Position numbers and translations under genes: made by a program
In this document: in pieces, positions 26,934 through 39,419 of the stretch
Layout: every line of letters starts with the position of its first letter
Numbering within the stretch: position 1 is the first letter of the stretch
The notes under the pieces: model-generated
Databases searched by the model: none
The model's input: the letters and a program-made list of their open reading frames with translations, nothing else
What the model was told of the DNA's origin: nothing
Assembly: GCF_017939705.1 (NCBI RefSeq)
Contig: NZ_JAGKSQ010000008.1
Location: 62,001 to 126,000, forward strand
Origin: Halalkalibacter suaedae
Lineage (GTDB): Bacteria > Bacillota > Bacilli > Bacillales > Bacillaceae_D
Length of the DNA stretch: 64,000 bases
Direction of reading: 5' to 3'

Positions 26934-27962
26934 TTAGGTGGTAAAACGAGATAAACGAAGGCTATCATAGGTATCTGTCATCTCAAATACAAATGATGTT
27001 AATAGAAATTCTTTAATATTGTGTCTTGTGCTTTCGTTACTTCGGCTATCAACAAACAGAAACCACGTAAGGTAATTGTCGAGATACTTTGTAGCCACAC
27101 CTTTAAAACGGTCTATCCAACGTTTCATGCGAGAATGGAGACCATTTACATTCTGAATGTGATACAAGCCTTTTATAACGTGCTTTCCATCATTTGATTT
27201 GATTCTATAATGCTCTATACCTTTTTCTTTTGCATATGTTTTGTAGGCTCTCCAAGCATCTGTAACAAGTACATTATCAGATGTTAGTTTAGAACCAATC
27301 ATCCTATCAACTTTCGTTTTCACAACACGACCCATACAAACAACTTTAGATACAGTAGATTTTGTGCGGTCTCTTGCAACAAGAACACAAACCTGTTCGT
27401 GGCTAATACCTCTGTGTTTTGATTTCCCACCACGCTTTCGAGGTTTGCGGTCTGAAATACCTCTCTTACCTTTTTCAGAATATAGGAAATAGGTCTCGTC
27501 AACTTCAACGATACCTTCAAATTGCTCAAAATCCATTTGTTTAAGGGCATTTAACAACTTGTGTCTCCAGTAAAAAAGAGTAACCCAAGTAACCCCTACG
27601 ATTTCAGCAGATTTTCGGAGGGAATAACCTTTGAACATACAATCGACAAATGTAATCCATTCGTTTCCTTTTCGAGTACGGTAAAGAACAGTATTTGTTG
27701 TATCAGTAAAGGTCTTACTACAACACCTACAACAATAGCGTTGACGACCATTGGGTGTACCGAAACGAACGATGTGTTCAGAAGCACAATGAGGACATTC
27801 AATCCCTTCTTTAAAGCGAGTTTCTCGCATTTCATTGATTAGATGACCACCGACAGAGGAAGAAGGCTGAACATAGCGTTTAACCCACTGATAAACTTGC
27901 TCTTTTTTCGTATGTGGTAGTGTATCAATGTGTTTTAACAAGTTACTAAACGCTTTGCTCAT
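26934..27962 (-). CDS. IS1595-family (ISXO2-like) transposase
   Basis: 342 residues. N-terminal zinc ribbon (CPHCASEHIVRFG then YCCRCCSKTFTDT), a helix-turn-helix segment (YSLRKSAEIVGVTWVTLFYW), then the DDE/DDN catalytic core: VEVDETYF, VTDAWRAYKTYAKEKG, and NGLHSRMKRWIDRFKG with the terminal YLDNYLTWFLF. ATG at 27962 follows GGGAGG; the frame is open further upstream without a better site. No frameshift or internal stop. Confidence 0.95.
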   Translation of the reverse strand: MSKAFSNLLKHIDTLPHTKKEQVYQWVKRYVQPSSSVGGHLINEMRETRFKEGIECPHCASEHIVRFGTPNGRQRYCCRCCSKTFTDTTNTVLYRTRKGNEWITFVDCMFKGYSLRKSAEIVGVTWVTLFYWRHKLLNALKQMDFEQFEGIVEVDETYFLYSEKGKRGISDRKPRKRGGKSKHRGISHEQVCVLVARDRTKSTVSKVVCMGRVVKTKVDRMIGSKLTSDNVLVTDAWRAYKTYAKEKGIEHYRIKSNDGKHVIKGLYHIQNVNGLHSRMKRWIDRFKGVATKYLDNYLTWFLFVDSRSNESTRHNIKEFLLTSFVFEMTDTYDSLRLSRFTT

Positions 27963-28052
27963 ACTTACAACCTCCCGAATGTTTGTTCTTGTGTTGATTA
28001 TACTAAGATTTCGGATAGGTATCAAATATCAACATTTACCTTTATCAGAGCC

Positions 28053-28060: not shown

Positions 28061-28140
28061 AAAAAAAGTGATCCAAATTCAAACTTTCTTCGTTAGCTCT
28101 ATGAATCTTAAATATTAAAACCATAAAAGGAGTGTTTGAA

Positions 28141-29505
28141 ATGAAAAAAAATCTTAGAAAATCAATGATGGTCGTACCACTTTCATTATCATTACTATTT
28201 GTACCAACGATGACAGGGCTTGCACATGAAGGTCATTCGGACGGACATATGCATGATGGTTCCGTTTCGGTTTCAACGCCAGCATCAGATTTAAGAGCTA
28301 CATTAGATCAATACTTATCTGAACATGCGTTTCTCGCCATTTACACGATGCAAAAAGGAGTCGACGGAGCAGAGGATTTTGATGAAATTGCAGTAGCGCT
28401 AAACCAAAACACAGAAGATCTATCGGTTGCAGTTGCCTCGGTCTACGGTGATGAGGCCGGCGAACAATTCAAGGAAATGTGGAGTGCACATATTGGTTTC
28501 TTCGTGGACTATGTTGTATCGACAGCTGAGGAAAATGAAGAAGGTCGCCAAGCTGCATTAGCCGAACTAGACCAATATAGAACTGATTTCTCTACTTTTC
28601 TTGAGACAGCTACAGAAGAACGACTAGAAGCTTCGGCTCTTGCGGAGGGATTACAAATGCATGTGGATCAATTGGTTTGGGCGTTTGATCAATATGTAGA
28701 AGGGAATTACGATGCGACATATGAGAATGCACGTGAAGCTGTTCATCATATGTATGGTGTTGGAAAAGGTCTTTCAACTGCGATAACGGACCAATTCCCT
28801 GATGAATTTGAAGAAACGACGCCAGCCACACCAGCTGCTGATCTTCGTGCAAATCTTAATCATTTGTTGTCCGAACATGCAGGTCTTGCGGTTTTTGCGA
28901 TGCAAAAGGGGATCGATGGTGCAGCTGACTTTGACGCAATTGCAGCTGCATTAAATGAAAATACAAGCAAATTATCTGATGCGATTTCTGCTGTCTACGG
29001 AGAAGAAGGCGGAGACGTGTTTGAACAAATGTGGAGCGAGCATATTGGCTATTTTGTTGACTACGTCGTCGCAACAGCTGAGGAGAATGAAGAAGGACGC
29101 CGAGAAGCCTTGATGAACCTTGACAATTACCGCGAAGATTTCTCAGCGTTTCTAGAAACGGCGACTGAAGAACGTTTAGAAGCTACAGCTCTAGCAGATG
29201 GCTTACAGATGCATGTTGACCAACTGGTGATGTCATTTGATAGTTATGTAGCTGGCGATTATGAGGCGGCCTATCAGAATGCGAGAGAGGCTTATGCACA
29301 TATGTTCGGTGTTGGAGAAAGCCTATCATCTGCGATTGTTGACCAATTTCCAGACTCATTTACGGATAAAACTCCAACTGATATGCCAAAAACAGGTCTA
29401 GGTGGAACGGCTCAATCAGGCTTTAGCATGGAGTTTGCAGCTATTCTGATAGTGATCCTACTAGCAGGATCTAGTTTCTTTGTTTTAAGACGCAAGCAGG
29501 CATAG
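28141..29505 (+). CDS. Secreted, sortase-anchored protein with two copies of a His-bearing helical domain
   Basis: 454 residues. Signal peptide (to ~30, ending LAHEGHSDGHMHDG, a histidine-rich stretch), two tandem ~175-residue domains about 65-70% alike by eye, then a wall-sorting signal MPKTGLGG, a membrane helix and RRKQA tail. Each domain repeats the histidines in LSEHA, HIG(F/Y)FVDYV, GLQMHVDQLV and H(H)MYG/HMFGVG on predicted helices, suggesting a metal-binding or haem-type four-helix bundle. I do not recognise the family. RBS AAAGGAG, ATG 28141. Neighbour of sortase and ECF genes. Confidence 0.8.
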   Translation: MKKNLRKSMMVVPLSLSLLFVPTMTGLAHEGHSDGHMHDGSVSVSTPASDLRATLDQYLSEHAFLAIYTMQKGVDGAEDFDEIAVALNQNTEDLSVAVASVYGDEAGEQFKEMWSAHIGFFVDYVVSTAEENEEGRQAALAELDQYRTDFSTFLETATEERLEASALAEGLQMHVDQLVWAFDQYVEGNYDATYENAREAVHHMYGVGKGLSTAITDQFPDEFEETTPATPAADLRANLNHLLSEHAGLAVFAMQKGIDGAADFDAIAAALNENTSKLSDAISAVYGEEGGDVFEQMWSEHIGYFVDYVVATAEENEEGRREALMNLDNYREDFSAFLETATEERLEATALADGLQMHVDQLVMSFDSYVAGDYEAAYQNAREAYAHMFGVGESLSSAIVDQFPDSFTDKTPTDMPKTGLGGTAQSGFSMEFAAILIVILLAGSSFFVLRRKQA

Positions 29506-29843: not shown

Positions 29844-30491
29844 ATGAACACTTGGCTTGGGATCATTTTTTTTAGTGTCACATTCGTTCTTTCTGCTTGT
29901 GGAGGACAGGAGCAAATGGAGGGAGACGGTCAAGCATCAGCATTCGAAACAAACGAGCCATTTCAACTAGATTCGGCGGAGAAAAGCTCCAAAACAGAAC
30001 AAACGAAACAGGAGACTAAGATCATTCGAGACGAACGAGTTGGCATTACGCCTATTCGAGTCACAATCCCTAGAATAGATGTTGAAGCTGAGATAGAAAA
30101 TGTGGGGTTACTTCCAAATGGGCAAATGGAAGAGCCTGATACGATAGATGGGGTCGCATGGTATGAGCTGGGCACAAAGCCAGGGGATCAAGGGAGTGCA
30201 GTGTTAGCTGGACATGTTGATAGTAAAACAGGGCCAGCCATATTCTATGATCTTCACAAGCTTGAAAAAGGCGATGAAATCATCGTCACTGGAGAAGAAG
30301 GTGAACCTCTAACGTTTATTGTCCAAGATAAAGTGGCATACCCAAGAGAAGAAGCACCTGTTCAGAAGATTTTCGGCTACTCATTTAGACGTCAATTAAA
30401 TTTGATTACATGTACTGGTGAATTTAATAGAGATGCGGGTACACATGACGAAAGGCTGGTTGTCTACACGGTGTTAAAGTCTGACTTGTAG
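29844..30491 (+). CDS. Class D/F-type sortase with lipoprotein signal
   Basis: 215 residues. Signal with lipobox VLSAC (Cys19), acidic/Gln linker to ~60, then a sortase beta-barrel: catalytic His in VLAGHVDSKTGPAIFYDL, Cys in NLITCTGEF and Arg in HDERLVVYTV. Anchoring by a lipid rather than a membrane helix is unusual for sortases but seen in this group. It most likely anchors the MPKTG protein encoded immediately upstream. RBS GGGGAGGGGGAG before ATG 29844. Confidence 0.88.
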   Translation: MNTWLGIIFFSVTFVLSACGGQEQMEGDGQASAFETNEPFQLDSAEKSSKTEQTKQETKIIRDERVGITPIRVTIPRIDVEAEIENVGLLPNGQMEEPDTIDGVAWYELGTKPGDQGSAVLAGHVDSKTGPAIFYDLHKLEKGDEIIVTGEEGEPLTFIVQDKVAYPREEAPVQKIFGYSFRRQLNLITCTGEFNRDAGTHDERLVVYTVLKSDL

Positions 30492-30658: not shown

Positions 30659-30755
30659 TGGCGGGACTGTGTAGGAATCGAACCTACCGGAGACGGCACG
30701 CGCCTCCCAAGCGGTTTTGAAGACCGTGGCGAACACCAGTGTCACAGCCAGCCCC
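30659..30755 (-). tRNA. selC: Selenocysteine tRNA (anticodon UCA)
   Basis: 97 nt on the minus strand, from GGGGCTGG to ...CAGTCCCGCCA with encoded CCA. Anticodon arm CGGT-CTTCAAA-ACCG gives UCA; T arm GTAGG-TTCGATT-CCTAC; a long variable arm (GGGAGGCGCGTGCCGTCTCC) lies between, as in tRNA-Sec. The acceptor stem pairs GGGGCTG with CAGTCCC including one G-U; the eighth pair expected in bacterial tRNA-Sec is G-A here. Delivered by SelB, encoded divergently 309 bp away. Confidence 0.93.
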
Positions 30756-30794
30756 AAATTAAAAAAATAAGTAAATCTAAATCCGACTTAAACT

Positions 30795-30823
30795 ATTATA
30801 CACACTTCGACAACCTTCCGCAA
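30795..30823 (-). promoter_or_regulatory. Sigma-A promoter of tRNA-Sec
   Basis: Reading leftwards: TTGCGG (30823-30818), 17-bp spacer, TATAAT (30800-30795), 40 bp before the tRNA 5' end. Confidence 0.7.
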
Positions 30824-30991
30824 GAGTTAAATAGACACACTTTATCTGATCACCTCAATTTTCAAGTTGCAAGTTAACACTATAAATGAATTACTCTAGC
30901 AAAATGAGGTTAGAGTAACATAAAGTCCATTCCTTATTTACCCATTCCCAACCACTTTTTCAATCTATTTTCTCAGACAACAACCTTTCCT

Positions 30992-31021
30992 TTGTTTTTC
31001 ATTTCATGATTATAGTATGAT
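30992..31021 (+). promoter_or_regulatory. Candidate sigma-A promoter of selB
   Basis: TTGTTT (30992-30997), 18-bp spacer, TATGAT (31016-31021), 42 bp before the selB start. With the tRNA promoter it forms a divergent pair; the rest of 30756-31063 shows nothing else. Confidence 0.5.
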
Positions 31022-31063
31022 TAGGTAATGTGAAAAATAGGCAACAAGGAAGGGTCAAACGTT

Positions 31064-32971
31064 ATGAAACACTACACAGTTGGTATGGCTGGTCATATTG
31101 ATCATGGCAAAACAACATTAACGAAAGCTTTAACAAACATAGATACCGATCGATTGAAGGAAGAGAAGGAGCGGAGTATTTCAATTGAACTTGGATATGC
31201 TCCACTAAAATTGACGGACGAGATGGAAGTTTCGCTCATTGATGTGCCGGGGCATGAGCGTTTTGTTCGACAGATGATCGCAGGAGTGGCTGGGATTGAT
31301 CTTGTCATGCTTGTCATTGCTGCTGATGAAGGGATTATGCCACAAACACGTGAGCACTTAGACATTCTTCGGTTACTGGGGATTGAGAAAGGTTTAGTTG
31401 TTGTTACGAAGAAAGATCGTATTGATGAGGAGATGCTAGAAATTGTTGAACTCGATATTCGAGAAGCAATTGAAGGGACCTTTTTAGAAGATGAAGAGTT
31501 AATCTTTGTTGATAGTTTAAGTGGGGACGGAATTGAAGAGTTGAAAGTAGCGATCGCTGATGGCTTAAGGGATCGTCCCAGTAAGGATGCAGGTGGTGCG
31601 TTTCGTCTGCCAATTGATCAGGTGTTTACAGTTCATGGACAAGGTACAGTCGTTAGAGGTACGGTCTATGAAGGTTTAGTGAAAGAGGGAGATATGCTAG
31701 AGCTCCACCCTCAACGTATTCCCGTTCGGGTTAGACAGCTCCAGGTTCATCATCAAGCAAGAACAACAGGACGAGCAGGTCAACGGGTAGCTATTAATCT
31801 TGGTGGCGTTTCAAAGGATGAAGTTCAGCGTGGGCATGTGCTCGTGGCTAGTGGACATTATGATACGACCGATACGATTGATGTCGCATTAACGACTGTT
31901 TCTGAGCTCTCTTATATTGTTAAGCAACGTGGGGCAATCAAACTACATATTGGAACAGCTGAAGTATATGGAAAAGTGGTCTTTTTTGATCGTAATGAAC
32001 TTAGTGAAGGGGACGAACAAATTGTTTGTCAGCTGAGACTTGATGATTCAATTGTGACAAGACGTGGTGATCGCTTTATTCTTCGTCGCCCGACACCGAT
32101 GGAAACGATTGGTGGTGGTGTCGTCATTGATGCCCATGGCGGAAAATATCGTTTTGGTGAAGAGACCGTACATGCATTAGAGCAGAAGATGAAATCCTCT
32201 CCTGAAGAGCAATTTCAACAGCTGCTGCTTGACCGGAAGATGTTAACGCTGAAGGAAGCGAGTAAGGAACTTCATCTCACAGAGCAAGAGCTTCAGGCTG
32301 AGGTAACGAACCATCCGGAACTACTCCAGCTTCCTTCTGGTGAGATCACAAGTGAAGCAGTGCTACGTTCTTTACGTACATCGTTTCAAACAGAATTCGA
32401 GCGATATCATTCTGAATTTCCATTACGTCCAGGAATGAAAAAGGCAGAAATGATTCAAAGCTATGCTACGACGTATCCGAAACGATTGTTGACATGGTTC
32501 ATGGATGAGGGAACGTCGAAGGGTTGGTTTGTTGTCGAGGGACCATATGTTGCAGGAACTGAGCATACCCCACATCCTCCTGGACAATGGGCAAAACGAG
32601 TTGAAAATGTGCTTGCGAGTTTAAAAGAAGAAGGTTTGAAGGTCACAGCATTGAAGCGGCATTTAGATAATCAGCAAATACCTGAGTCACTGCATGAAGA
32701 GATTAGTCTATATTTTCATCATCAAGAACATTTAATTCAGCTAGATGAAAAATTATCAATCCATCATGAGCCGTTCCGTGAAGCGGTCAGAAGTCTTTTT
32801 AATGAGACGAACGATGTCTTTTTGCTTCAAGATGCAAAAGAGTTAACAGGGCTTTCAAGGAAGTATCTTGTTCCGTTTGTTGAAAAGCTCGACAAGTTAG
32901 GATTAACGATTCGTCAAGATCAGGAACGGAAATGGAAGGTTGATAAAGTTGAAAATTGGCTCAGTCACTAA
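31064..32971 (+). CDS. selB: Selenocysteine-specific elongation factor SelB
   Basis: 635 residues. EF-Tu-like G domain with GHIDHGKTT (P-loop), switch region ERSISIELGY, DVPGH, and VTKKD in place of NKxD, as usual in SelB. Then beta domains 2-3 and a C-terminal half of winged-helix modules (from ~370; e.g. FLLQDAKELTGLSRKYLVPF) that bind the SECIS hairpin. Brings Sec-tRNA to ribosomes paused at UGA. Its 3' end overlaps the next gene by 23 bp. Confidence 0.96.
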   Translation: MKHYTVGMAGHIDHGKTTLTKALTNIDTDRLKEEKERSISIELGYAPLKLTDEMEVSLIDVPGHERFVRQMIAGVAGIDLVMLVIAADEGIMPQTREHLDILRLLGIEKGLVVVTKKDRIDEEMLEIVELDIREAIEGTFLEDEELIFVDSLSGDGIEELKVAIADGLRDRPSKDAGGAFRLPIDQVFTVHGQGTVVRGTVYEGLVKEGDMLELHPQRIPVRVRQLQVHHQARTTGRAGQRVAINLGGVSKDEVQRGHVLVASGHYDTTDTIDVALTTVSELSYIVKQRGAIKLHIGTAEVYGKVVFFDRNELSEGDEQIVCQLRLDDSIVTRRGDRFILRRPTPMETIGGGVVIDAHGGKYRFGEETVHALEQKMKSSPEEQFQQLLLDRKMLTLKEASKELHLTEQELQAEVTNHPELLQLPSGEITSEAVLRSLRTSFQTEFERYHSEFPLRPGMKKAEMIQSYATTYPKRLLTWFMDEGTSKGWFVVEGPYVAGTEHTPHPPGQWAKRVENVLASLKEEGLKVTALKRHLDNQQIPESLHEEISLYFHHQEHLIQLDEKLSIHHEPFREAVRSLFNETNDVFLLQDAKELTGLSRKYLVPFVEKLDKLGLTIRQDQERKWKVDKVENWLSH

Positions 32972-33983
32972 ACCGAACATTCTATTTTTTACTCCATTTT
33001 TTAAACAGCATCGTGGAAATTCAACAACGGCTCTTCGTCTTGTTGAAGGGCTGAAAATGTGGGATGCCACAGTAAAGGTTTTTGCCTATGAAGAAGAAGA
33101 GTGGAACGAGGAGATTGAAGCGTTTTTTAACGAAGCGGATCTAGTTCATGTCCTTCATTTGAAGCGGTTTGCATTATGGTTGAAAACAGTCCCTCATTTG
33201 AAGTTAGACATGCCGTATATTCTAACCTCTGGTGGCACTGATATTAACGAAGACTTAAAAAGCCCTGAGGCAACTTGCTTAATCGAATCAGTTGTTAATA
33301 GGTCTTGTGGGATTACAGTATTTAGTCAGGATGGTAGACAGAAATTACTTCAAGCCTACCCTGAACTTAATGATCGTGTCTACGTCATCCCGCAAAGTGT
33401 ATGGCTTCCTAAAAATGAAGCTGAAATTGTTCCAGTTTTACCTGGGAAGCCTGCTCTGTTATTGCCGGCAGGCTTACGACCGGTCAAGGATGTGTTTTTC
33501 TTATGGGACGAACTGAAGGAGTTGCATGATCGCTATCCCGAGCTGACTTTTACAATTATTGGAGCAGCTCTTGATCCTACTGTCAGTGAAGAAGTCGAAA
33601 CACGTTCTAGAAAGCATAGTTGGTTTCACTATCTTAAAGAAGTTCCGCTTGCTCAAATGGCTGCAATCTATCAACAAGCAGACATCGTTTTAAATACCTC
33701 TCTATCAGAGGGGCAATCAACAGCGTTACTTGAGGCAATGCAAGTAGGGAAAATAGTGATGGCTAGAAGGAATCCTGGGAATGAAAGCATTATTCAGCCT
33801 GGTCACACAGGAATCCTATTTGACTCGCCAGAAGAATTTCGTTTGAAATTAGAAAAGCTCCTAGAAAATAGAAATATTCAAATAAATCTCGTGAAACATG
33901 CACAAACTTATATGAATAGTCATCACTCGCTAGAGGGTGAGATGAACAAATTTCTAAAAGTATATACCCATTGCTTGAGTTAA
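32949..33983 (+). CDS. GT4 glycosyltransferase resembling SenB (selenosugar synthase) / GLT1D1
   Basis: 344 residues, GT-B fold. Conserved-looking segments: FKQHRGNSTTALRLVEG, HVLHLKRFALW, TSGGTDINEDL, VYVIPQSVW, GLRPVKDVFFLWDELK, IGAALDP, LSEGQSTALLEAM and RRNPGNE. By memory these align with TIGR04348/SenB, which makes a selenosugar from selenophosphate and UDP-GlcNAc, and also with the GLT1D1 group, so substrate is uncertain. TTG start at 32949, nine bases after GGAAGG, overlaps selB by 23 bp: translational coupling. Followed by an ABC importer in the same direction. Confidence 0.75.
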   Translation: MKIGSVTKPNILFFTPFFKQHRGNSTTALRLVEGLKMWDATVKVFAYEEEEWNEEIEAFFNEADLVHVLHLKRFALWLKTVPHLKLDMPYILTSGGTDINEDLKSPEATCLIESVVNRSCGITVFSQDGRQKLLQAYPELNDRVYVIPQSVWLPKNEAEIVPVLPGKPALLLPAGLRPVKDVFFLWDELKELHDRYPELTFTIIGAALDPTVSEEVETRSRKHSWFHYLKEVPLAQMAAIYQQADIVLNTSLSEGQSTALLEAMQVGKIVMARRNPGNESIIQPGHTGILFDSPEEFRLKLEKLLENRNIQINLVKHAQTYMNSHHSLEGEMNKFLKVYTHCLS

Positions 33984-34062
33984 GTTACTTTACAAAGGTA
34001 ATGAGATGATGGTAGATTTTTCAATGTACTTAGAAAAAGAGATAAAAAGGTGGAGAAATAGA

Positions 34063-35001
34063 ATGAAAAAATGGTTAATTACATTAGGGCTTGCGTTTGC
34101 TCTAACAGCATGTGGGTCAAGTGATCCAGACGAAGTCGTTGAATCACCAACGGATGAAGAAACGACTGAAGAAGAAGTAGCTGAAACGGAAACAGATAAT
34201 AGTACTTTTGAAATAGCCGTTATTCCTTCTCAATCAACAGGTGAGATGCAAACAGGTCTTGATAATTTACAGAGCTATTTAACAGAGGAGCTTGAACGTG
34301 AAGTTGTTGTAACGCAGTATCCAAACTACAATGCAGTTGTTGAAGCGTTAAATTATAACCATGTTGACTTAGCCTTTTTAGGCCCGTTAACGTATGTTAT
34401 TGCTCATGAACAGAGTGGTGCAAAAGCAATCGTAACGATTGAAGTAGATGGGAGTTCATTTTATCACTCATACATTATTACCCATGCTGATAATGAGTGG
34501 GCGAACTTAGATGAGCTTCTTGCAGATGCTGGTGAAGTTGATTTTGCTTTCGGTAGTATTTCATCAACATCGGGTCATTTAATTCCAGGCTTACATCTTC
34601 GTGATCTTGGCTATTATGAGAGTGAAGATCAAAATGAATTTAATCAAGTTCAATTTGCTGGTTCACATGATGTTGTTGCAACCCTTGTTCAAAATCAGGA
34701 TGTTGATGCAGGGGCGATTGACAGTGCTATTTTAAACGAATTAATTGAACAAGGGACGGTTTCGGCGGACGAAATTAAAATCCTTTGGGAATCACAAGAA
34801 CTGTACCAATACCCTTGGGTTGTTCCTGCACAAACAAGTGATGAACTAGTGACGCAGCTTCAAGAAGCATTTTTTGCGATTGAGGATCCCGAAATTTTAA
34901 GTATCTTTGGTGGGGCAACAAAGTTTGTCGAAGCTGAAGATAGTAATTACTCAGATATTGTTGATGCAGCTCGTGAATTTAATATGCTTACATTAGAATA
35001 G
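34063..35001 (+). CDS. PhnD-family substrate-binding lipoprotein, predicted selenium-compound importer
   Basis: 312 residues. Lipobox FALTAC (Cys16), acidic linker to ~48, then a PhnD-type solute-binding fold: FEIAVIPSQSTGEMQTGLD, NHVDLAFLGPLTYVIA, FAFGSISSTSGHLIPGLHL, DVDAGAIDSAILNELIEQG. PhnD relatives bind phosphonate, phosphite or similar oxyanions. From memory a PhnD-related group is annotated as predicted selenate importer because it neighbours selD. Start MKKWLITLG at 34063 after AAAGGTGGAG; upstream ATGs give an unlikely extension. First gene of an ABC operon. Confidence 0.85.
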   Translation: MKKWLITLGLAFALTACGSSDPDEVVESPTDEETTEEEVAETETDNSTFEIAVIPSQSTGEMQTGLDNLQSYLTEELEREVVVTQYPNYNAVVEALNYNHVDLAFLGPLTYVIAHEQSGAKAIVTIEVDGSSFYHSYIITHADNEWANLDELLADAGEVDFAFGSISSTSGHLIPGLHLRDLGYYESEDQNEFNQVQFAGSHDVVATLVQNQDVDAGAIDSAILNELIEQGTVSADEIKILWESQELYQYPWVVPAQTSDELVTQLQEAFFAIEDPEILSIFGGATKFVEAEDSNYSDIVDAAREFNMLTLE

Positions 35002-35012
35002 AGGTTTTCTTA

Positions 35013-35774
35013 ATGGTTTGGTTTCGTAGGCGTTATATCATTTATTTCTTGCTTATTTTAGCCGCAACATGGTGGAGCATGGATGTGACTGGTTTTGAGT
35101 GGAGAAAGCTTACGCAAATCGGAAATATTGTTGATATGGTGACCACTCGCTTCTTTCCTGTTGAGTGGTCACTTTTTCCGAGAATGGCGTTACATAGTCT
35201 TGTGACACTCGCGGTTGCTTTTTTAGGGACAACCTTTGCCTTAGTTGTCGCATTGCCACTCAGCTTTCTTGCTGCTAAAAACACAAGTGGAACAGTTGGG
35301 ATGTATGCTACCATTCGTGGTGGGTTAAGTGCCCTTCGCTCGATTCCTGAGATTGTATTTGGTTTAATATTCGTTGCCGCATTTGGACTTGGTCCGTTTG
35401 CTGCAGTGCTTGCCATCATTCTCCATAATATTGGTGTATTAGGAAAATTGATTTCAGAATTAATTGAGGCGGCAGAGGCAGGGCCGCAAGAGGCGATGCG
35501 TTCGGTTGGTGCGACCAAATGGATTGGACATCTTTTTGCGATTGTTCCACAAATTTGGCCGAATGTTTTGTCTCATTTCTTCTATAGATTTGAAGTTGCT
35601 ATTAGAACCTCCTTAATTTTAGGTTTCATTGGTGGTGGTGGGATTGGTCAGCAATTATTTAACCATTTCCAGAGTTTTTATTATACAGCCGTTACCGTTG
35701 ATATAATTTTAATCATGATCTTAGTGATTATGGTTGACTTTATTGGTGGTCGGATACGTTCAAGGGTCATATAG
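35013..35774 (+). CDS. PhnE-family ABC permease
   Basis: 253 residues with about six membrane helices and the permease EAA-type loop (AAEAGPQEAMRSVGATKWIG), followed by IVPQIWPNVLSHFFYRFEVA and LGFIGGGGIGQQL, matching phosphonate-type permeases. It starts 11 bp after the binding-protein gene, with GAGG upstream. Forms the membrane channel of the importer. Confidence 0.87.
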   Translation: MVWFRRRYIIYFLLILAATWWSMDVTGFEWRKLTQIGNIVDMVTTRFFPVEWSLFPRMALHSLVTLAVAFLGTTFALVVALPLSFLAAKNTSGTVGMYATIRGGLSALRSIPEIVFGLIFVAAFGLGPFAAVLAIILHNIGVLGKLISELIEAAEAGPQEAMRSVGATKWIGHLFAIVPQIWPNVLSHFFYRFEVAIRTSLILGFIGGGGIGQQLFNHFQSFYYTAVTVDIILIMILVIMVDFIGGRIRSRVI

Positions 35775-35786
35775 GAGGGGATGTCG

Positions 35787-36521
35787 ATGTTAACAATTTC
35801 AGACTTAGTTGTTAGATATCCGAAAGCTGAAGAAAATGCGATTGACCATGTTTCTGTTGAACTGGATAAAGGAGAATTTGTTTGTGTACTTGGCAAGAGT
35901 GGTGCAGGTAAGTCCACCTTTATTCGAGCGATTAATCGCCTTCAAAAGCCGACATCAGGTCAAATTAGCTGGGGGAATACCGAATTAACGAACTTATCTG
36001 AAGCGAAAATGCGTTATCTTCGTTCAGACATGGTGATGATTTTCCAGCATTTTAATTTAATTCCGCGTATGACTGTTTTTCAGAATACGCTGACAGGATC
36101 CTTTGGGAAACGACCTCCAATTAAGAATTTACTAGGTATTTTCTCAGAGCAAGAAAAAGAAAGAGCATATCAAGCATTGAAAGAAGTAGGGTTGAGTAAA
36201 TTTGCCCATAAGAGAGTGGAAGATTTGAGTGGCGGACAAAAGCAAAGGGTTGGTATAGCTCGAGCATTGATGCAGGACCCGCAGCTAGTGCTGGGGGACG
36301 AACCAGTTGCAAGCTTAGATCCGTCTACATCCAGAACAATCTTTGAGCTGTTGCAACGAATTCATCAGGAGCGAAATTTACTAACAATTATTAATGTCCA
36401 TGATGTTCATTTAGCGAAAGAATTTGCGACGAGAATCATTGCATTTAGAGATGGGAAATTAATTTTCGATGGGAAACCAGATCAAGTGGATGAGCATCAA
36501 TTTGCTGAAATTTATCAGTAA
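35787..36521 (+). CDS. PhnC-family ABC ATPase
   Basis: 244 residues. Walker A LGKSGAGKST, Q-loop MVMIFQHFNLI, signature LSGGQKQRVGIARALM, Walker B LVLGDEP, H-loop INVHDVHLA. Close to PhnC ATPases. ATG at 35787 is eight bases after GGAGGGG; the ATG at 35781 is too near. Ends the four-gene run begun by selB, before a strong terminator. Confidence 0.9.
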   Translation: MLTISDLVVRYPKAEENAIDHVSVELDKGEFVCVLGKSGAGKSTFIRAINRLQKPTSGQISWGNTELTNLSEAKMRYLRSDMVMIFQHFNLIPRMTVFQNTLTGSFGKRPPIKNLLGIFSEQEKERAYQALKEVGLSKFAHKRVEDLSGGQKQRVGIARALMQDPQLVLGDEPVASLDPSTSRTIFELLQRIHQERNLLTIINVHDVHLAKEFATRIIAFRDGKLIFDGKPDQVDEHQFAEIYQ

Positions 36522-36524
36522 AAG

Positions 36525-36572
36525 AGGGGTGCCACAAACGTCAAATACAGACGTTTGTGGCACCCCTTTTTA
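36525..36572. terminator. Bidirectional terminator between importer operon and selD
   Basis: AGGGGTGCCACAAACGTC pairs perfectly with its complement at 36550-36567, flanked by AAA and TTTTT; it serves both converging transcripts. Confidence 0.9.
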
Positions 36573-36576
36573 ATAA

Positions 36577-37626
36577 TTATTTTACAACGATTGGTTTTTC
36601 ACCTTTTTCAAGTACTGTTCCAATAATCGTCGCTTGTTTGCCGGCTTGCTCCATGCTCTGAACATAGCTGTTTGCTTCTTCTCTAGTTAGAGCGATCAGC
36701 AATCCACCCGAGGTGATCGCGTCACATAAAATGCTCTTCTCAACATCACTAATACTCGTAGAGAAATCAACTTCGTCTTTTAACCAACGTTCGTTTGCTT
36801 TTGAACCACCAGGGACAATGCCTTTTTCAGCAAGATCACGCGTGCCCTCTAGCATTGGAACATTTGTCATTTGTAATTCGAATGTTACATCACTGCCTTT
36901 AGCCATTTCGAAGCTATGACCGAGTAGACCGAACCCTGTAACATCCGTAACCGCATGTGGATTAAGTCCTTCAAGATGTTCAGCTGCAATATTATTAAGC
37001 TCAGCCATTGTTTCAGTTACAGCCTTTTCCTGAGCTTCTGTAACAGCATCCCGCTTAATGCCAGTCGTTAAAATACCAACACCGATCGGCTTCGTTAACA
37101 CGAGAACATCACCAGGAATGGCACCAACATTTTTAAATATACGATCTGGATGAGCAAGACCTGTAACCGATAGCCCGAATTTAGGCTCTTGGTCGTCGAT
37201 GGAATGCCCACCAACAATAATTGCTCCAGCTTCCTTTGTTTTGTCTGCAGCACCGAGGAGAATATTAGCTAACACTTCCGGTGGCAAAACTGTAATAGGG
37301 AAACCGACGATGTTCATTACCGTTGTCGGCTTACCGCCCATTGCGTAGACATCGCTTAATGCGTTAGCTGCTGCGATTTGTCCAAACATATATGGATCAT
37401 CAACAACAGGTGTAAAATAATCAACTGTCTGAATCATTGCTAAGTCGTCTGTTAATTTATAAGCACCAGCGTCATCAGATGTATCGAGCCCAACGAGTAA
37501 GTTAGGGTCATGTGTTTGTTTAGGTAAATGTCGCAAAACTTGCGACAGGTCTTCTGGACCAATTTTGCATCCTCAACCAGCTTTTGTCGAGAATGAAGTT
37601 AATTTAATGTTATCATGCTTGTCCAT
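36577..37626 (-). CDS. selD: Selenide, water dikinase SelD; a selenoprotein (in-frame UGA)
   Basis: 349 residues. From the ATG at 37626 (AGGAGGTGTCCAA upstream) the protein reads MDKHDNIKLTSFSTKAG, then UGA at 37575-37573 as Sec18, then GCKIGPED: the SelD active-site loop, with Lys21 of the catalytic CK motif. The rest has the PurM-like body (VGLDTSDDAGAYKL, DVYAMGGKP, GHSIDD, TDVTGFGLLGHS). Makes selenophosphate from selenide and ATP. A reading starting after the UGA would miss the catalytic residues. Convergent with the importer operon and divergent from selW. Confidence 0.95.
37529..37575 (-). promoter_or_regulatory. SECIS element of selD
   Basis: 25 nt after the UGA, TGTCGCAA pairs with TTGCGACA (8 bp) over the loop GTT, with G at the first loop position, as bacterial SECIS elements require. 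A smaller GGTC/GACC hairpin lies between. Role inferred from position. Confidence 0.7.
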
Positions 37627-37667
37627 TTGGACACCTCCTACAATCTTTCAATAACTATCTTTATCTT

Positions 37668-37696
37668 TTGCATCCTGTCTTGTATTATCCTACAAT
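37668..37696 (+). promoter_or_regulatory. Sigma-A promoter of the SelW-like gene
   Basis: TTGCAT (37668-37673), 17-bp spacer, TACAAT (37691-37696), 36 bp before the start codon. Confidence 0.65.
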
Positions 37697-37731
37697 AGAG
37701 AGGAAAACAAAGTAAAGGAGTTTGATTTGGA

Positions 37732-37974
37732 ATGGAATATAAATTATCTGTAGAATTTTGCATGATGTGAAACTATGCACCGAAAGCCGTGAGTTTCGCG
37801 GACGATATCTTAGATCATTTTCGTGGCAAAGTCAAAGAGGTTAAGCTAGTCACTAGCTCTGGTGGAGTTTTTGAAGTGACTGTGAATGGAGAAAAGCTCT
37901 ATTCAAAAAAAGAAACCGGAGAATTTCCAGAATCAACAGAAGTGATTGAAAAGATGGAAGCAATGAGCGAGTAA
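37732..37974 (+). CDS. SelW-like (Rdx family) selenoprotein, in-frame UGA
   Basis: 80 residues with UGA at codon 13 (37768-37770). MEYKLSVEFCMMU gives the CxxU redox motif of the Rdx/SelW/SelT thioredoxin-like family in the right place after the first beta strand; then NYAPKAVSFADDILDHFRGK, LVTSSGGVFEVTVNGEKLYS and KKETGEFPES follow the family pattern (G.FEV..NG..L.SK...G.FP). Thought to act in thiol/peroxide redox chemistry. AAAGGAG lies 12 bases upstream. 60 bp upstream of selA with a hairpin between. A GTG inside (37789) would give only a fragment without the motif. Confidence 0.92.
37771..37800 (+). promoter_or_regulatory. SECIS element of the SelW-like gene
   Basis: CGAAA (37781-37785) pairs with TTTCG (37794-37798) over an 8-nt loop beginning G, 10 nt after the UGA. 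Weaker than the selD hairpin. Confidence 0.5.
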
Positions 37975-37975
37975 G

Positions 37976-38000
37976 AAAAAACACCTTTTTGGTGTTTTTT
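37976..38000 (+). terminator. Terminator between SelW-like gene and selA
   Basis: AAAAAACACC pairs with GGTGTTTTTT, loop TTTTT, right after the SelW-like stop. It could end that transcript or limit readthrough into selA. Confidence 0.75.
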
Positions 38001-38033
38001 CTGCGAAAATACCTAGTGAAAGGTGTAGAAACA

Positions 38034-39419
38034 ATGAAACAAATGCTAAGACATCTCCCTGCCATTCATGAGCTTCAGCAGGATCAGCGTTTTGCTAAGC
38101 TAGAAGAAAAATGGTCGAAGGCGAAAGCAACAGAATGGGTACAAGAGGCGGTTGCTGAACTACGTAAGGAATTATTGGAAGAAACGTGGGTACAGTCAAA
38201 CGATATAATTGATTTCGTTGATGAGATTTTCATGCGTGTGTCAGAACGCCTTAGTGAACATTCGATGAAACGTCTTCAACGTGTTATTAATGGCACAGGT
38301 ACAGTATTACATACAAATCTTGGACGAGCTAGACTCGGTGAGCGAGCGACTCTACAAGTGGCACAAACGGCTCAATCATATTCAAACCTAGAATATAACT
38401 TAATTGAAGGCAAGCGTGGTTCAAGGCATGATCTGATTGAAGGCATTGTCAAAGAAATAACTGGTGCAGAAGCAGCGATGGTTGTAAATAATAATGCTGC
38501 AGCTGTTTATTTAATCTTAAAAGCATTAGCGAAGGAAAAAGAGGTTATTGTTTCACGAGGAGAGTTAGTTGAAATTGGTGGCTCGTTTCGTGTCTCGTCG
38601 ATTATGGAAGAAAGCGGAGCACACCTTATTGAGGTTGGAACAACAAATAAGACCCATCAATCAGATTATGAGCAAGCGATTAACGAAAACACAGCAATGA
38701 TTATGAAAGTCCATACAAGCAATTTTAAGATTATTGGCTTTACTAAAGAAATTCCAGCAAGTGAGTTAAAGCACGTAACCGAACAACATAAGGTAATCTT
38801 ATACGAAGACTTAGGTAGTGGGGCAATCTATGACCTGCGTCAGGATGGCATCGGCAATGAACCAACTGTCTCTGAGGCATTAATGCATGCAGACATTGTT
38901 TCCTTTAGTGGCGACAAATTACTCGGTGGACCTCAAGTTGGTATGATTGCAGGAAAAAAGGATCTAATTGATAAATTAAAAAAGCATCAGCTTGCACGTG
39001 TACTAAGAGTTGATAAGATGACCTTGGCTGCACTTGAGGCAACGCTGAGTGAGTACCGGGATTTAGATAAGGCTAAAACGACAATCCCAACATTAAAGGC
39101 GATACTATTAACGAAGGAAGAGGTTAGAGCAAGGATCGCATTATTTAAGCCAAAGATCCCAGCAAGCTTTCTTTCTGAGATTATTGATGGAACATCACAA
39201 GTTGGTGGTGGCACGATGCCAGAGGTGGAACTAGATACTTGCTTGTTAAAATTAAACCATCAGTCAATAAAGTCACATGAAATCCAGGAACAGTTACGTA
39301 AGGGGAGTCCCGCAGTCGTTGGACGAATCCAAGAAGATGCATTATTATTTGATTTTAGAACAATTGATGAAGCCGAGTTCGCTGATCTAGAGGCTCGTTT
39401 ACAAGAATTTGCAAACTAG
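38034..39419 (+). CDS. selA: L-seryl-tRNA(Sec) selenium transferase
   Basis: 461 residues, PLP-dependent. N-terminal helical tRNA-binding domain (MKQMLRHLPAIHELQ), then RVINGTGTVLHTNLGRARL, NNNAAAVYLILKAL and the PLP-lysine motif VSFSGDKLLGGPQVG. Converts Ser-tRNA-Sec to Sec-tRNA-Sec using selenophosphate from SelD; works as a decamer. ATG at 38034 after GAAAGGTG; earlier in-frame starts fall in the hairpin. A thioesterase gene follows 17 bp later. Confidence 0.96.
   Translation: MKQMLRHLPAIHELQQDQRFAKLEEKWSKAKATEWVQEAVAELRKELLEETWVQSNDIIDFVDEIFMRVSERLSEHSMKRLQRVINGTGTVLHTNLGRARLGERATLQVAQTAQSYSNLEYNLIEGKRGSRHDLIEGIVKEITGAEAAMVVNNNAAAVYLILKALAKEKEVIVSRGELVEIGGSFRVSSIMEESGAHLIEVGTTNKTHQSDYEQAINENTAMIMKVHTSNFKIIGFTKEIPASELKHVTEQHKVILYEDLGSGAIYDLRQDGIGNEPTVSEALMHADIVSFSGDKLLGGPQVGMIAGKKDLIDKLKKHQLARVLRVDKMTLAALEATLSEYRDLDKAKTTIPTLKAILLTKEEVRARIALFKPKIPASFLSEIIDGTSQVGGGTMPEVELDTCLLKLNHQSIKSHEIQEQLRKGSPAVVGRIQEDALLFDFRTIDEAEFADLEARLQEFAN

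What the first reader, a model, noticed from the sequence alone, without database searches (positions are those of the whole stretch)
31064..36521. SenB-like glycosyltransferase and phosphonate-type importer inside a selenocysteine operon
selB, a GT4 enzyme and PhnD/E/C-like genes run in one direction with overlap or short gaps (selB and the glycosyltransferase overlap by 23 bp). Convergent to them is selD, and selA follows. The glycosyltransferase resembles SenB, which makes a selenosugar from selenophosphate. SenA and the rest of a selenoneine pathway are not in this window. This suggests either a selenosugar made for another purpose or a new selenium acquisition/storage branch linked to Sec decoding.
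Basis: partly seen in the sequence, partly recalled or inferred. Interest (0 to 1): 0.9.

Follow-up and report, generated by a model that had tools for sequence, protein, structure and literature searches.

The report
Selenosugar enzyme in a selenocysteine operon
A Bacillus-like bacterium carries, among its genes for making selenium-containing proteins, a probable selenium-to-sugar joining enzyme and an import pump, and in its relatives the enzyme is inherited together with a sugar-trimming enzyme, which points to an undescribed small selenium compound.

Summary
selB, a GT4 glycosyltransferase and PhnD/E/C-like importer genes form one run; selD, a SelW-like gene, selA and tRNA-Sec flank it.
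The enzyme is not SenB by NCBI's cut-off (72 of 300 bits), but keeps 11 of 13 SenB functional sites, against 2 to 6 in 15 other GT4 proteins of the genome, and groups with SenB in a tree. No EgtD was found, so selenoneine is unlikely.
Among 120 related genomes all 37 with the enzyme have selA (59 do). The importer's binding-protein orthologs occur only in selA genomes and track the enzyme. New: a NodB-type deacetylase, next to the enzyme in one lineage and unlinked in the window's, is in 29 of 37 enzyme-positive and 0 of 83 enzyme-negative genomes. In more distant members of the phylum a PIG-L deacetylase often sits beside it instead.
Best reading: selenium uptake, selenophosphate, Se-GlcNAc, then seleno-glucosamine: an undescribed selenosugar branch of the selenocysteine system. 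Chemistry, importer ligand and purpose are inferred. New variant of a known kind.

The parts
30659..30755 (-). tRNA-Sec gene (anticodon TCA)
   Evidence: ARAGORN; Rfam RF01852, 60.2 bits over gathering 47
31064..32971 (+). selB, Sec-specific elongation factor
   Evidence: TIGR00475 359 bits over cut-off 242
32934..32939 (+). GGAAGG, likely ribosome-binding site of the glycosyltransferase, inside selB
   Evidence: read
32949..33983 (+). SenB-like GT4 glycosyltransferase, predicted Se-glycosyltransferase; overlaps selB by 23 bp
   Evidence: NF038229 246 bits (cut-off 400), TIGR04348/SenB 72 bits (cut-off 300); active-site match; tree; model pLDDT 94
34063..35001 (+). PhnD-type substrate-binding protein with lipoprotein-like start, predicted importer of a selenium species
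   Evidence: TIGR01098 184 bits over 112; TIGR04553 166 (cut-off 250); PhnD 161 (cut-off 261); fold comparison; co-occurrence
35013..35774 (+). PhnE-type permease
   Evidence: TIGR01097 248 bits over 217
35781..36521 (+). PhnC-type ATPase
   Evidence: TIGR02315 307 bits over 266
36525..36567 (-). terminator-like stem-loop after selD (also lies just after phnC)
   Evidence: 18 pairs, 11 G-C, consensus scan; 7 such sites found in the region against 6.8 in shuffles, so not evidence by itself
36577..37626 (-). selD, itself a selenoprotein; UGA at 37575-37573
   Evidence: TIGR00476 375 bits over 125; read-through; 407 bits with 1 TGA inside
37732..37974 (+). SelW-like selenoprotein, CMMU, UGA at 37768-37770
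   Evidence: downstream part PF10262 Rdx and TIGR02174 over cut-off
38034..39419 (+). selA, Sec synthase
   Evidence: TIGR00474 562 bits over 268

Best explanation
The glycosyltransferase is a second kind of Se-glycosyltransferase. It joins selenium from selenophosphate (made by the neighbouring SelD) to the sugar of UDP-GlcNAc, giving 1-seleno-GlcNAc. An N-deacetylase (NodB type, encoded elsewhere in this genome; a PIG-L enzyme in more distant members of the phylum) then removes the acetyl group to give seleno-glucosamine, the same two-step logic as BshA/BshB in bacillithiol. The PhnD/E/C-like importer supplies the selenium species that feeds both this branch and SelA. The compound most likely buffers or stores reactive selenide in Sec-decoding Bacillota. 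Shown here: the gene arrangement, its conservation, the co-inheritance and the active-site match. Inferred: donor, acceptor, product, the importer's ligand and the purpose.
For: Active site: of 13 SenB sites named in PMC10891094, 11 are kept in the window enzyme (T83 is Gly, H235 is Thr), with 5 of the 6 selenophosphate-pocket residues; 15 other GT4 proteins of the genome keep 2 to 6 of 13 and at most 2 of 6. Tree: 44 family members and 2 SenB against 10 paralogs, 100/99. Profile match to SenB 98.8%, E 4.8e-17. Selenium link: 37 of 37 enzyme-positive among 120 relatives have selA, 59 having it (p 7e-16; 18 of 18 genera against 31 of 65, p 4e-8); 22 of 22 positive genomes in a phylum sample of 398 have selD, 260 having it (p 6e-5). 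Two gene orders: selB-GT-SBP-E-C-(selD)-selW-selA, and GT-selD-SBP-E-C-deacetylase, in several loci with selB and selA diverging. Deacetylase: orthologs of 205 bits or more in 29 of 37 positive and 0 of 83 negative relatives, 0 of 22 of those with selA but no enzyme (p 7e-21, genera 4e-12), though in 24 of these 29 it lies on another contig or far away. PIG-L-type gene directly upstream in 10 of 13 more distant loci (cluster c15; two members scanned: PF02585; one against NCBIfam: BshB1 119 bits, below its cut-off).
Confidence: 0.55

Rival explanations
1. The enzyme is a Se-glycosyltransferase, but the selenosugar is the end product, a sink that traps excess selenide or selenophosphate; the deacetylase link reflects some other shared need.
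For: Same active-site and co-occurrence evidence; 8 of 37 positive relatives have no NodB partner of 205 bits or more; no deacetylase lies beside the enzyme in the window.
Against: The NodB partner is absent from all 83 enzyme-negative relatives, and at least two unrelated deacetylase types lie beside the enzyme in different lineages.
Confidence: 0.2
2. The enzyme is a GlcNAc transferase to a carbon or oxygen acceptor, as BshA is to malate, making a thiol-type cofactor precursor needed by selenium-using cells; it does not touch selenium.
Against: TIGR03999 BshA only 32.7 bits against cut-off 273.7; the genome's other GT4 proteins lack the SenB pocket; the tree joins it to SenB, not to the ten paralogs; strict tie to selA/selD in the samples.
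Confidence: 0.17
3. The importer carries phosphite, phosphonate or phosphate and only shares the neighbourhood (this can be true together with any of the others).
Confidence: 0.25
4. The glycosyltransferase is an ordinary cell-envelope GT4 that hitch-hikes in the sel operon.
For: GT4 enzymes are common (16 Pfam PF00534 matches in this genome); 18 of 80 contig loci and 3 of 36 relatives' loci have no sel gene in the stretch held.
Against: The three relatives with no sel gene nearby (G071, G102, G107) have both selA and selD, as do the distant genomes checked for selD; the genomes behind the 18 contigs were not checked. Co-occurrence and active site as above.
Confidence: 0.04

Closest known systems
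SenB (TIGR04348), selenosugar synthase of selenoneine biosynthesis
   Same: GT-B/GT4 fold, most donor and selenophosphate-pocket residues, grouping in a tree
   Different: 72 bits against cut-off 300; EGQ in place of EGGAHV; neighbours are Sec genes, an importer and, in some lineages, a deacetylase; no EgtD found in the genome
BshA/BshB (bacillithiol) and MshA/MshB (mycothiol)
   Same: GT4 enzyme paired with a sugar N-deacetylase; close fold
   Different: BshA score 32.7 of 273.7; acceptor pocket like SenB's; main deacetylase partner is of NodB type; tied to Sec genomes
NF038229, GPMC system family 4 glycosyltransferase
   Same: Best-scoring NCBIfam profile for the window enzyme and for four other members from three lineages (199-262 bits)
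   Different: All five below cut-off 400; no paper on the GPMC system was found
TIGR04553, putative selenate ABC transporter substrate-binding protein
   Same: Match over the whole profile; a selenium role is already guessed in this model's name
   Different: 166 bits against cut-off 250, about equal to the PhnD score of 161
NF040786, selenium metabolism-associated LysR regulator
   Same: The LysR gene beside the enzyme in L089 scores 271 over cut-off 250
   Different: No LysR gene noticed among the ORFs around the window's operon (read, not searched)

Membership tests
SenB (TIGR04348) | Score over NCBIfam cut-off 300 | tested here: not met
   72.2 bits
SenB (TIGR04348) | Residues N20, T23, H58, R61, T85, D86, Q131, R155, K158, E231, E239 | tested here: met
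   all 11 kept in the window enzyme (sites mapped by motif and spacing)
SenB (TIGR04348) | T83 and H235 | tested here: not met
   Gly and Thr; H235 is Asn in one of the two SenB used
SenB (TIGR04348) | EGGAHV motif | tested here: not met
   EGQSTA in the window; E231 kept
SenB (TIGR04348) | Hercynine supply for the selenoneine route (EgtD) | tested here: not met
   No EgtD at E 1e-5 in the genome, 98.73% complete
SenB (TIGR04348) | SenA partner gene | not tested
   SenA was not searched for; none noticed among the ORFs beside the operon
SenB (TIGR04348) | Makes selenosugar from selenophosphate and UDP-sugar | not testable with these tools
   needs an enzyme assay
BshA (TIGR03999) | Score over cut-off 273.7 | tested here: not met
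   32.7 bits
GPMC glycosyltransferase (NF038229) | Score over cut-off 400 | tested here: not met
   246.2 bits
Putative selenate ABC binding protein (TIGR04553) | Score over cut-off 250 | tested here: not met
   166.2 bits
PhnD (TIGR03431) | Score over cut-off 261.1 | tested here: not met
   161.5 bits
PhnE (TIGR01097) and PhnC (TIGR02315) | Scores over cut-offs | tested here: met
   247.7 over 216.7 and 307.1 over 266.1
Bacterial selenocysteine system | selA, selB, selD and tRNA-Sec present | tested here: met
NodB-type de-N-acetylase (partner, outside the window) | Pfam PF01522 and catalytic motifs | tested here: met
   PF01522 113.6 bits for the L065 copy; TFDDGP, HxxxH, RPPFG, DW and HE columns invariant or nearly so in 13. 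The window genome's own copy was found at 42% identity but not scanned itself

The most novel reading that the evidence does not exclude
Sec-decoding Bacillota make an undescribed selenium metabolite, seleno-glucosamine (or a close GlcN-Se compound), by a dedicated pathway of importer, SelD, a new Se-glycosyltransferase family and interchangeable N-deacetylases: a selenium counterpart of bacillithiol's first two steps that stores or buffers selenide for selenocysteine synthesis.
Probability: 0.4. Interest if true: 0.88.

Novelty: new variant of a known kind. Interest (0 to 1): 0.78.

Why it matters
A 2024 paper calls SenB the only functionally identified Se-glycosyltransferase (and characterises two close SenB-like enzymes; PMC10891094, section 10), and a 2026 review states that no specific high-affinity selenium transport system has been identified in prokaryotes (PMC13188914, passage). 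This locus offers a candidate for each in Bacillales, including named strains, plus a partner enzyme that predicts the product. It turns a selenium gene neighbourhood into a pathway that one in-vitro reaction and one 75Se labelling experiment can test.

Tried and rejected
The single-protein scan of genome contigs found nothing; the alignment scan worked but kept only the best 80 of 219 relatives, all Bacillota by their titles, so other phyla were not sampled. The fold comparison did not separate SenB from BshA. NCBIfam cut-offs gave no membership for the enzyme, and for the binding protein only the broad model TIGR01098. Neighbours of the unlinked deacetylase: in 20 stretches no gene recurs widely; small groups of close relatives share some, and one cluster of generic ABC ATPases is in 9. 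RNA folding after the UGA was favourable for selD (z -2.4) and not for selW (z -0.2). A simple hydrophobicity scan gives the deacetylases no clear signal peptide: best 17-residue mean in the first 45 residues at most 1.03 in 13 linked and 1.32 in 20 unlinked copies, against 1.51 for the importer's lipoprotein; the margin is small. Literature: searches turned up no description of this enzyme, pathway or importer; the library is open-access only, and the DOI I recalled for the 2022 selenoneine discovery paper is not held. PMC5322559 (passages) lists an unnamed Slackia glycosyltransferase as a STRING neighbour of YedE; whether it belongs to this family was not tested.

Corrections and dropped rows. 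In one search my selD query was in a wrong frame; it was corrected, but the selD count for the 36 relatives' loci still rests and may be low. The tree left out five of 15 paralogs. One deacetylase neighbour (L119) was dropped as unrelated (28% identity). Two partial deacetylase hits (G029, G113; 175 and 156 bits) are left out of the strict count of 29; with them it is 31. In the 398-genome sample the deacetylase passes 205 bits only in G000 and G328, both with the enzyme; four further genomes have weaker hits (151-174 bits) in longer proteins, and those four are not among the 22 with the enzyme. Three of those 22 are partial matches (G121, G278, G500); without them 19 of 19 have selD (p 2e-4). 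Genus counts are my own tallies from the listings.
Full report
What is there. The window lies in a genome of 4.3 Mb (98.73% complete); the closest named matches to its enzyme are from Halalkalibacter. tRNA-Sec, selB, a GT4 glycosyltransferase, PhnD/E/C-like genes, selD, a SelW-like gene and selA lie within 30659-39419. selD and selW both contain an in-frame UGA at the expected place (AG-U-GCKIG and CMMU). The glycosyltransferase most likely starts at TTG 32949 with GGAAGG upstream, overlapping selB by 23 bp. A stem-loop lies between phnC and selD.

Is the arrangement conserved? Of 120 related genomes (own included), 37 have the enzyme at E <= 1e-10. In the 36 stretches fetched around it in the others, selB is in 31, the binding protein in 30, selD in at least 30, selA in 28, and some sel gene in 33. 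Of 80 loci kept from 219 in the genome collection, 41 have all eight genes in the stretch, 62 have some sel gene and 18 have none; some genomes occur in both sets, and stretches differ in length. A second order, GT-selD-SBP-PhnE-PhnC-deacetylase, appears in Planococcus, Paenisporosarcina, Halobacillus, Aquibacillus, Rossellomorea and others, in several with selB and selA diverging. A rearranged neighbourhood that keeps the same members argues for shared function.

Is the enzyme tied to selenium? All 37 positive relatives have selA over its cut-off; 59 of 120 do, and none of the 61 others has the enzyme (p 7e-16, by genus 18 of 18 against 31 of 65, p 4e-8). In 398 genomes drawn across the phylum, 22 have it at E <= 1e-25 and all 22 have selD, which 260 have (p 6e-5). 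In a check of 24 positive genomes, including ones where no sel gene is nearby, all 24 have selD over the cut-off with one in-frame TGA; of three enzyme-negative genomes in the same call one does (it has selA) and two do not. Genomes are related, so these p-values overstate the case.

The deacetylase. In the second gene order the operon ends with a roughly 200-residue NodB-type deacetylase (PF01522 for the copy scanned); 17 of 122 loci examined have a member (52-60% identity to the L135 copy). The family was then sought in the 120 relatives. Orthologs of 205 bits or more (background up to 150) are in 29 genomes, all enzyme-positive: 29 of 37 against 0 of 83, and 0 of 22 that have selA but no enzyme (p 7e-21; genera p 4e-12; within selA genomes p 8e-10). 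Two more positives have partial copies; six have none. In five of the 29 the gene is beside or in the enzyme's operon (G058, G071, G091, G101, G102); in the rest it lies on another contig or far away, so linkage does not explain the pattern. Where one family or genus has both kinds of genome (f1, f7, f16, f20, f25), the deacetylase goes with the enzyme except in a few positive genomes that lack it. The window genome has one (210-aa frame, 42% identity, 170 bits, next best 92 bits). A simple scan shows no clear signal peptide, so they may act inside the cell. In more distant members of the phylum a PIG-L-type gene lies directly upstream of the enzyme in 10 of 13 loci (cluster c15; PF02585 in the two scanned; nearest BshB1 but below cut-off in the one scanned). 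In a fourth lineage another protein follows the enzyme in 4 of 4 loci; one of two scanned scores as polysaccharide deacetylase (24.6 over 23.1), the other does not. Different deacetylases in the same place suggest that the product carries an N-acetyl group, that is, UDP-GlcNAc as donor.

The importer. Binding-protein orthologs at 434 bits or more are in 36 of 120 relatives, all with selA (p 3e-15); the next PhnD-like proteins score 168 or less. Within the 59 selA genomes, enzyme and binding protein go together (35 both, 2 enzyme only, 1 importer only, 21 neither; p 1e-12; genera 16/2/0/13, p 5e-7). Fold matches are PtxB, PhnD and the arsenic-oxyanion binders AioX and ArrX, tied at the top, so an oxyanion-type ligand is plausible and its identity open. 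TIGR04553 already bears the name putative selenate transporter; this protein falls below its cut-off.

How it most likely works. Selenium enters, is reduced to selenide, SelD makes selenophosphate, the enzyme makes Se-GlcNAc and the deacetylase makes seleno-glucosamine. Gene facts are shown; all chemistry is inferred. Purpose is the least sure: storage or buffering of oxygen-sensitive selenide is my preferred reading.

What is known. SenB is called the only functionally identified Se-glycosyltransferase (PMC10891094, section 10). PMC10702425 (first of three parts read) reports its preference for UDP-GlcNAc. In PMC9312934, PMC13188914 and PMC5029168 the word glycosyltransferase does not occur; in PMC5322559 it occurs once, for an unnamed neighbour of YedE (passages only). 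PMC12936836 (passages) notes selenosugars as a liver selenium store in mammals, a parallel only.

Noticed in passing
window 37573-37575 and 37768-37770: selD and a SelW-like gene are selenoproteins; a mechanical ORF list truncates both.
   Followed up: yes
L089:9156-10082 and 15 other loci (cluster c11): A LysR gene beside the enzyme in some relatives; the L089 copy scores over the cut-off of the selenium-metabolism LysR model NF040786.
   Followed up: partly
G004, G008, G012 (L036, L040, L034): selA beside the enzyme is split into pieces in three relatives (in L040 selB too), while enzyme and importer look whole. G004 has a second, whole selA on another contig. Decay or sequencing error was not decided.
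   Followed up: no
own genome G000:C22:423794-424381 (in L193): Unlinked NodB-type deacetylase predicted to act with the window enzyme.
   Followed up: partly
L133 (Salipaludibacillus): The enzyme lies with the importer genes but without sel genes in the stretch held.
   Followed up: no
window 28132-29505 and 29844-30491: A secreted-looking protein with a His-rich start, an internal duplication and a sortase-like MPKTG end (read), followed by a sortase (PF04203): probably a sortase and its substrate.
   Followed up: no
window 26934-28025: Likely transposase with a zinc-finger-like N-terminus (reading of the ORF, no profile search).
   Followed up: no
no locus: From recall, not from any call: vertebrate GLT1D1 shares several motifs of this family. 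The one GLT1D1 paper in the search listing (PMC7191186, listing only) describes PD-L1 glycosylation.
   Followed up: no
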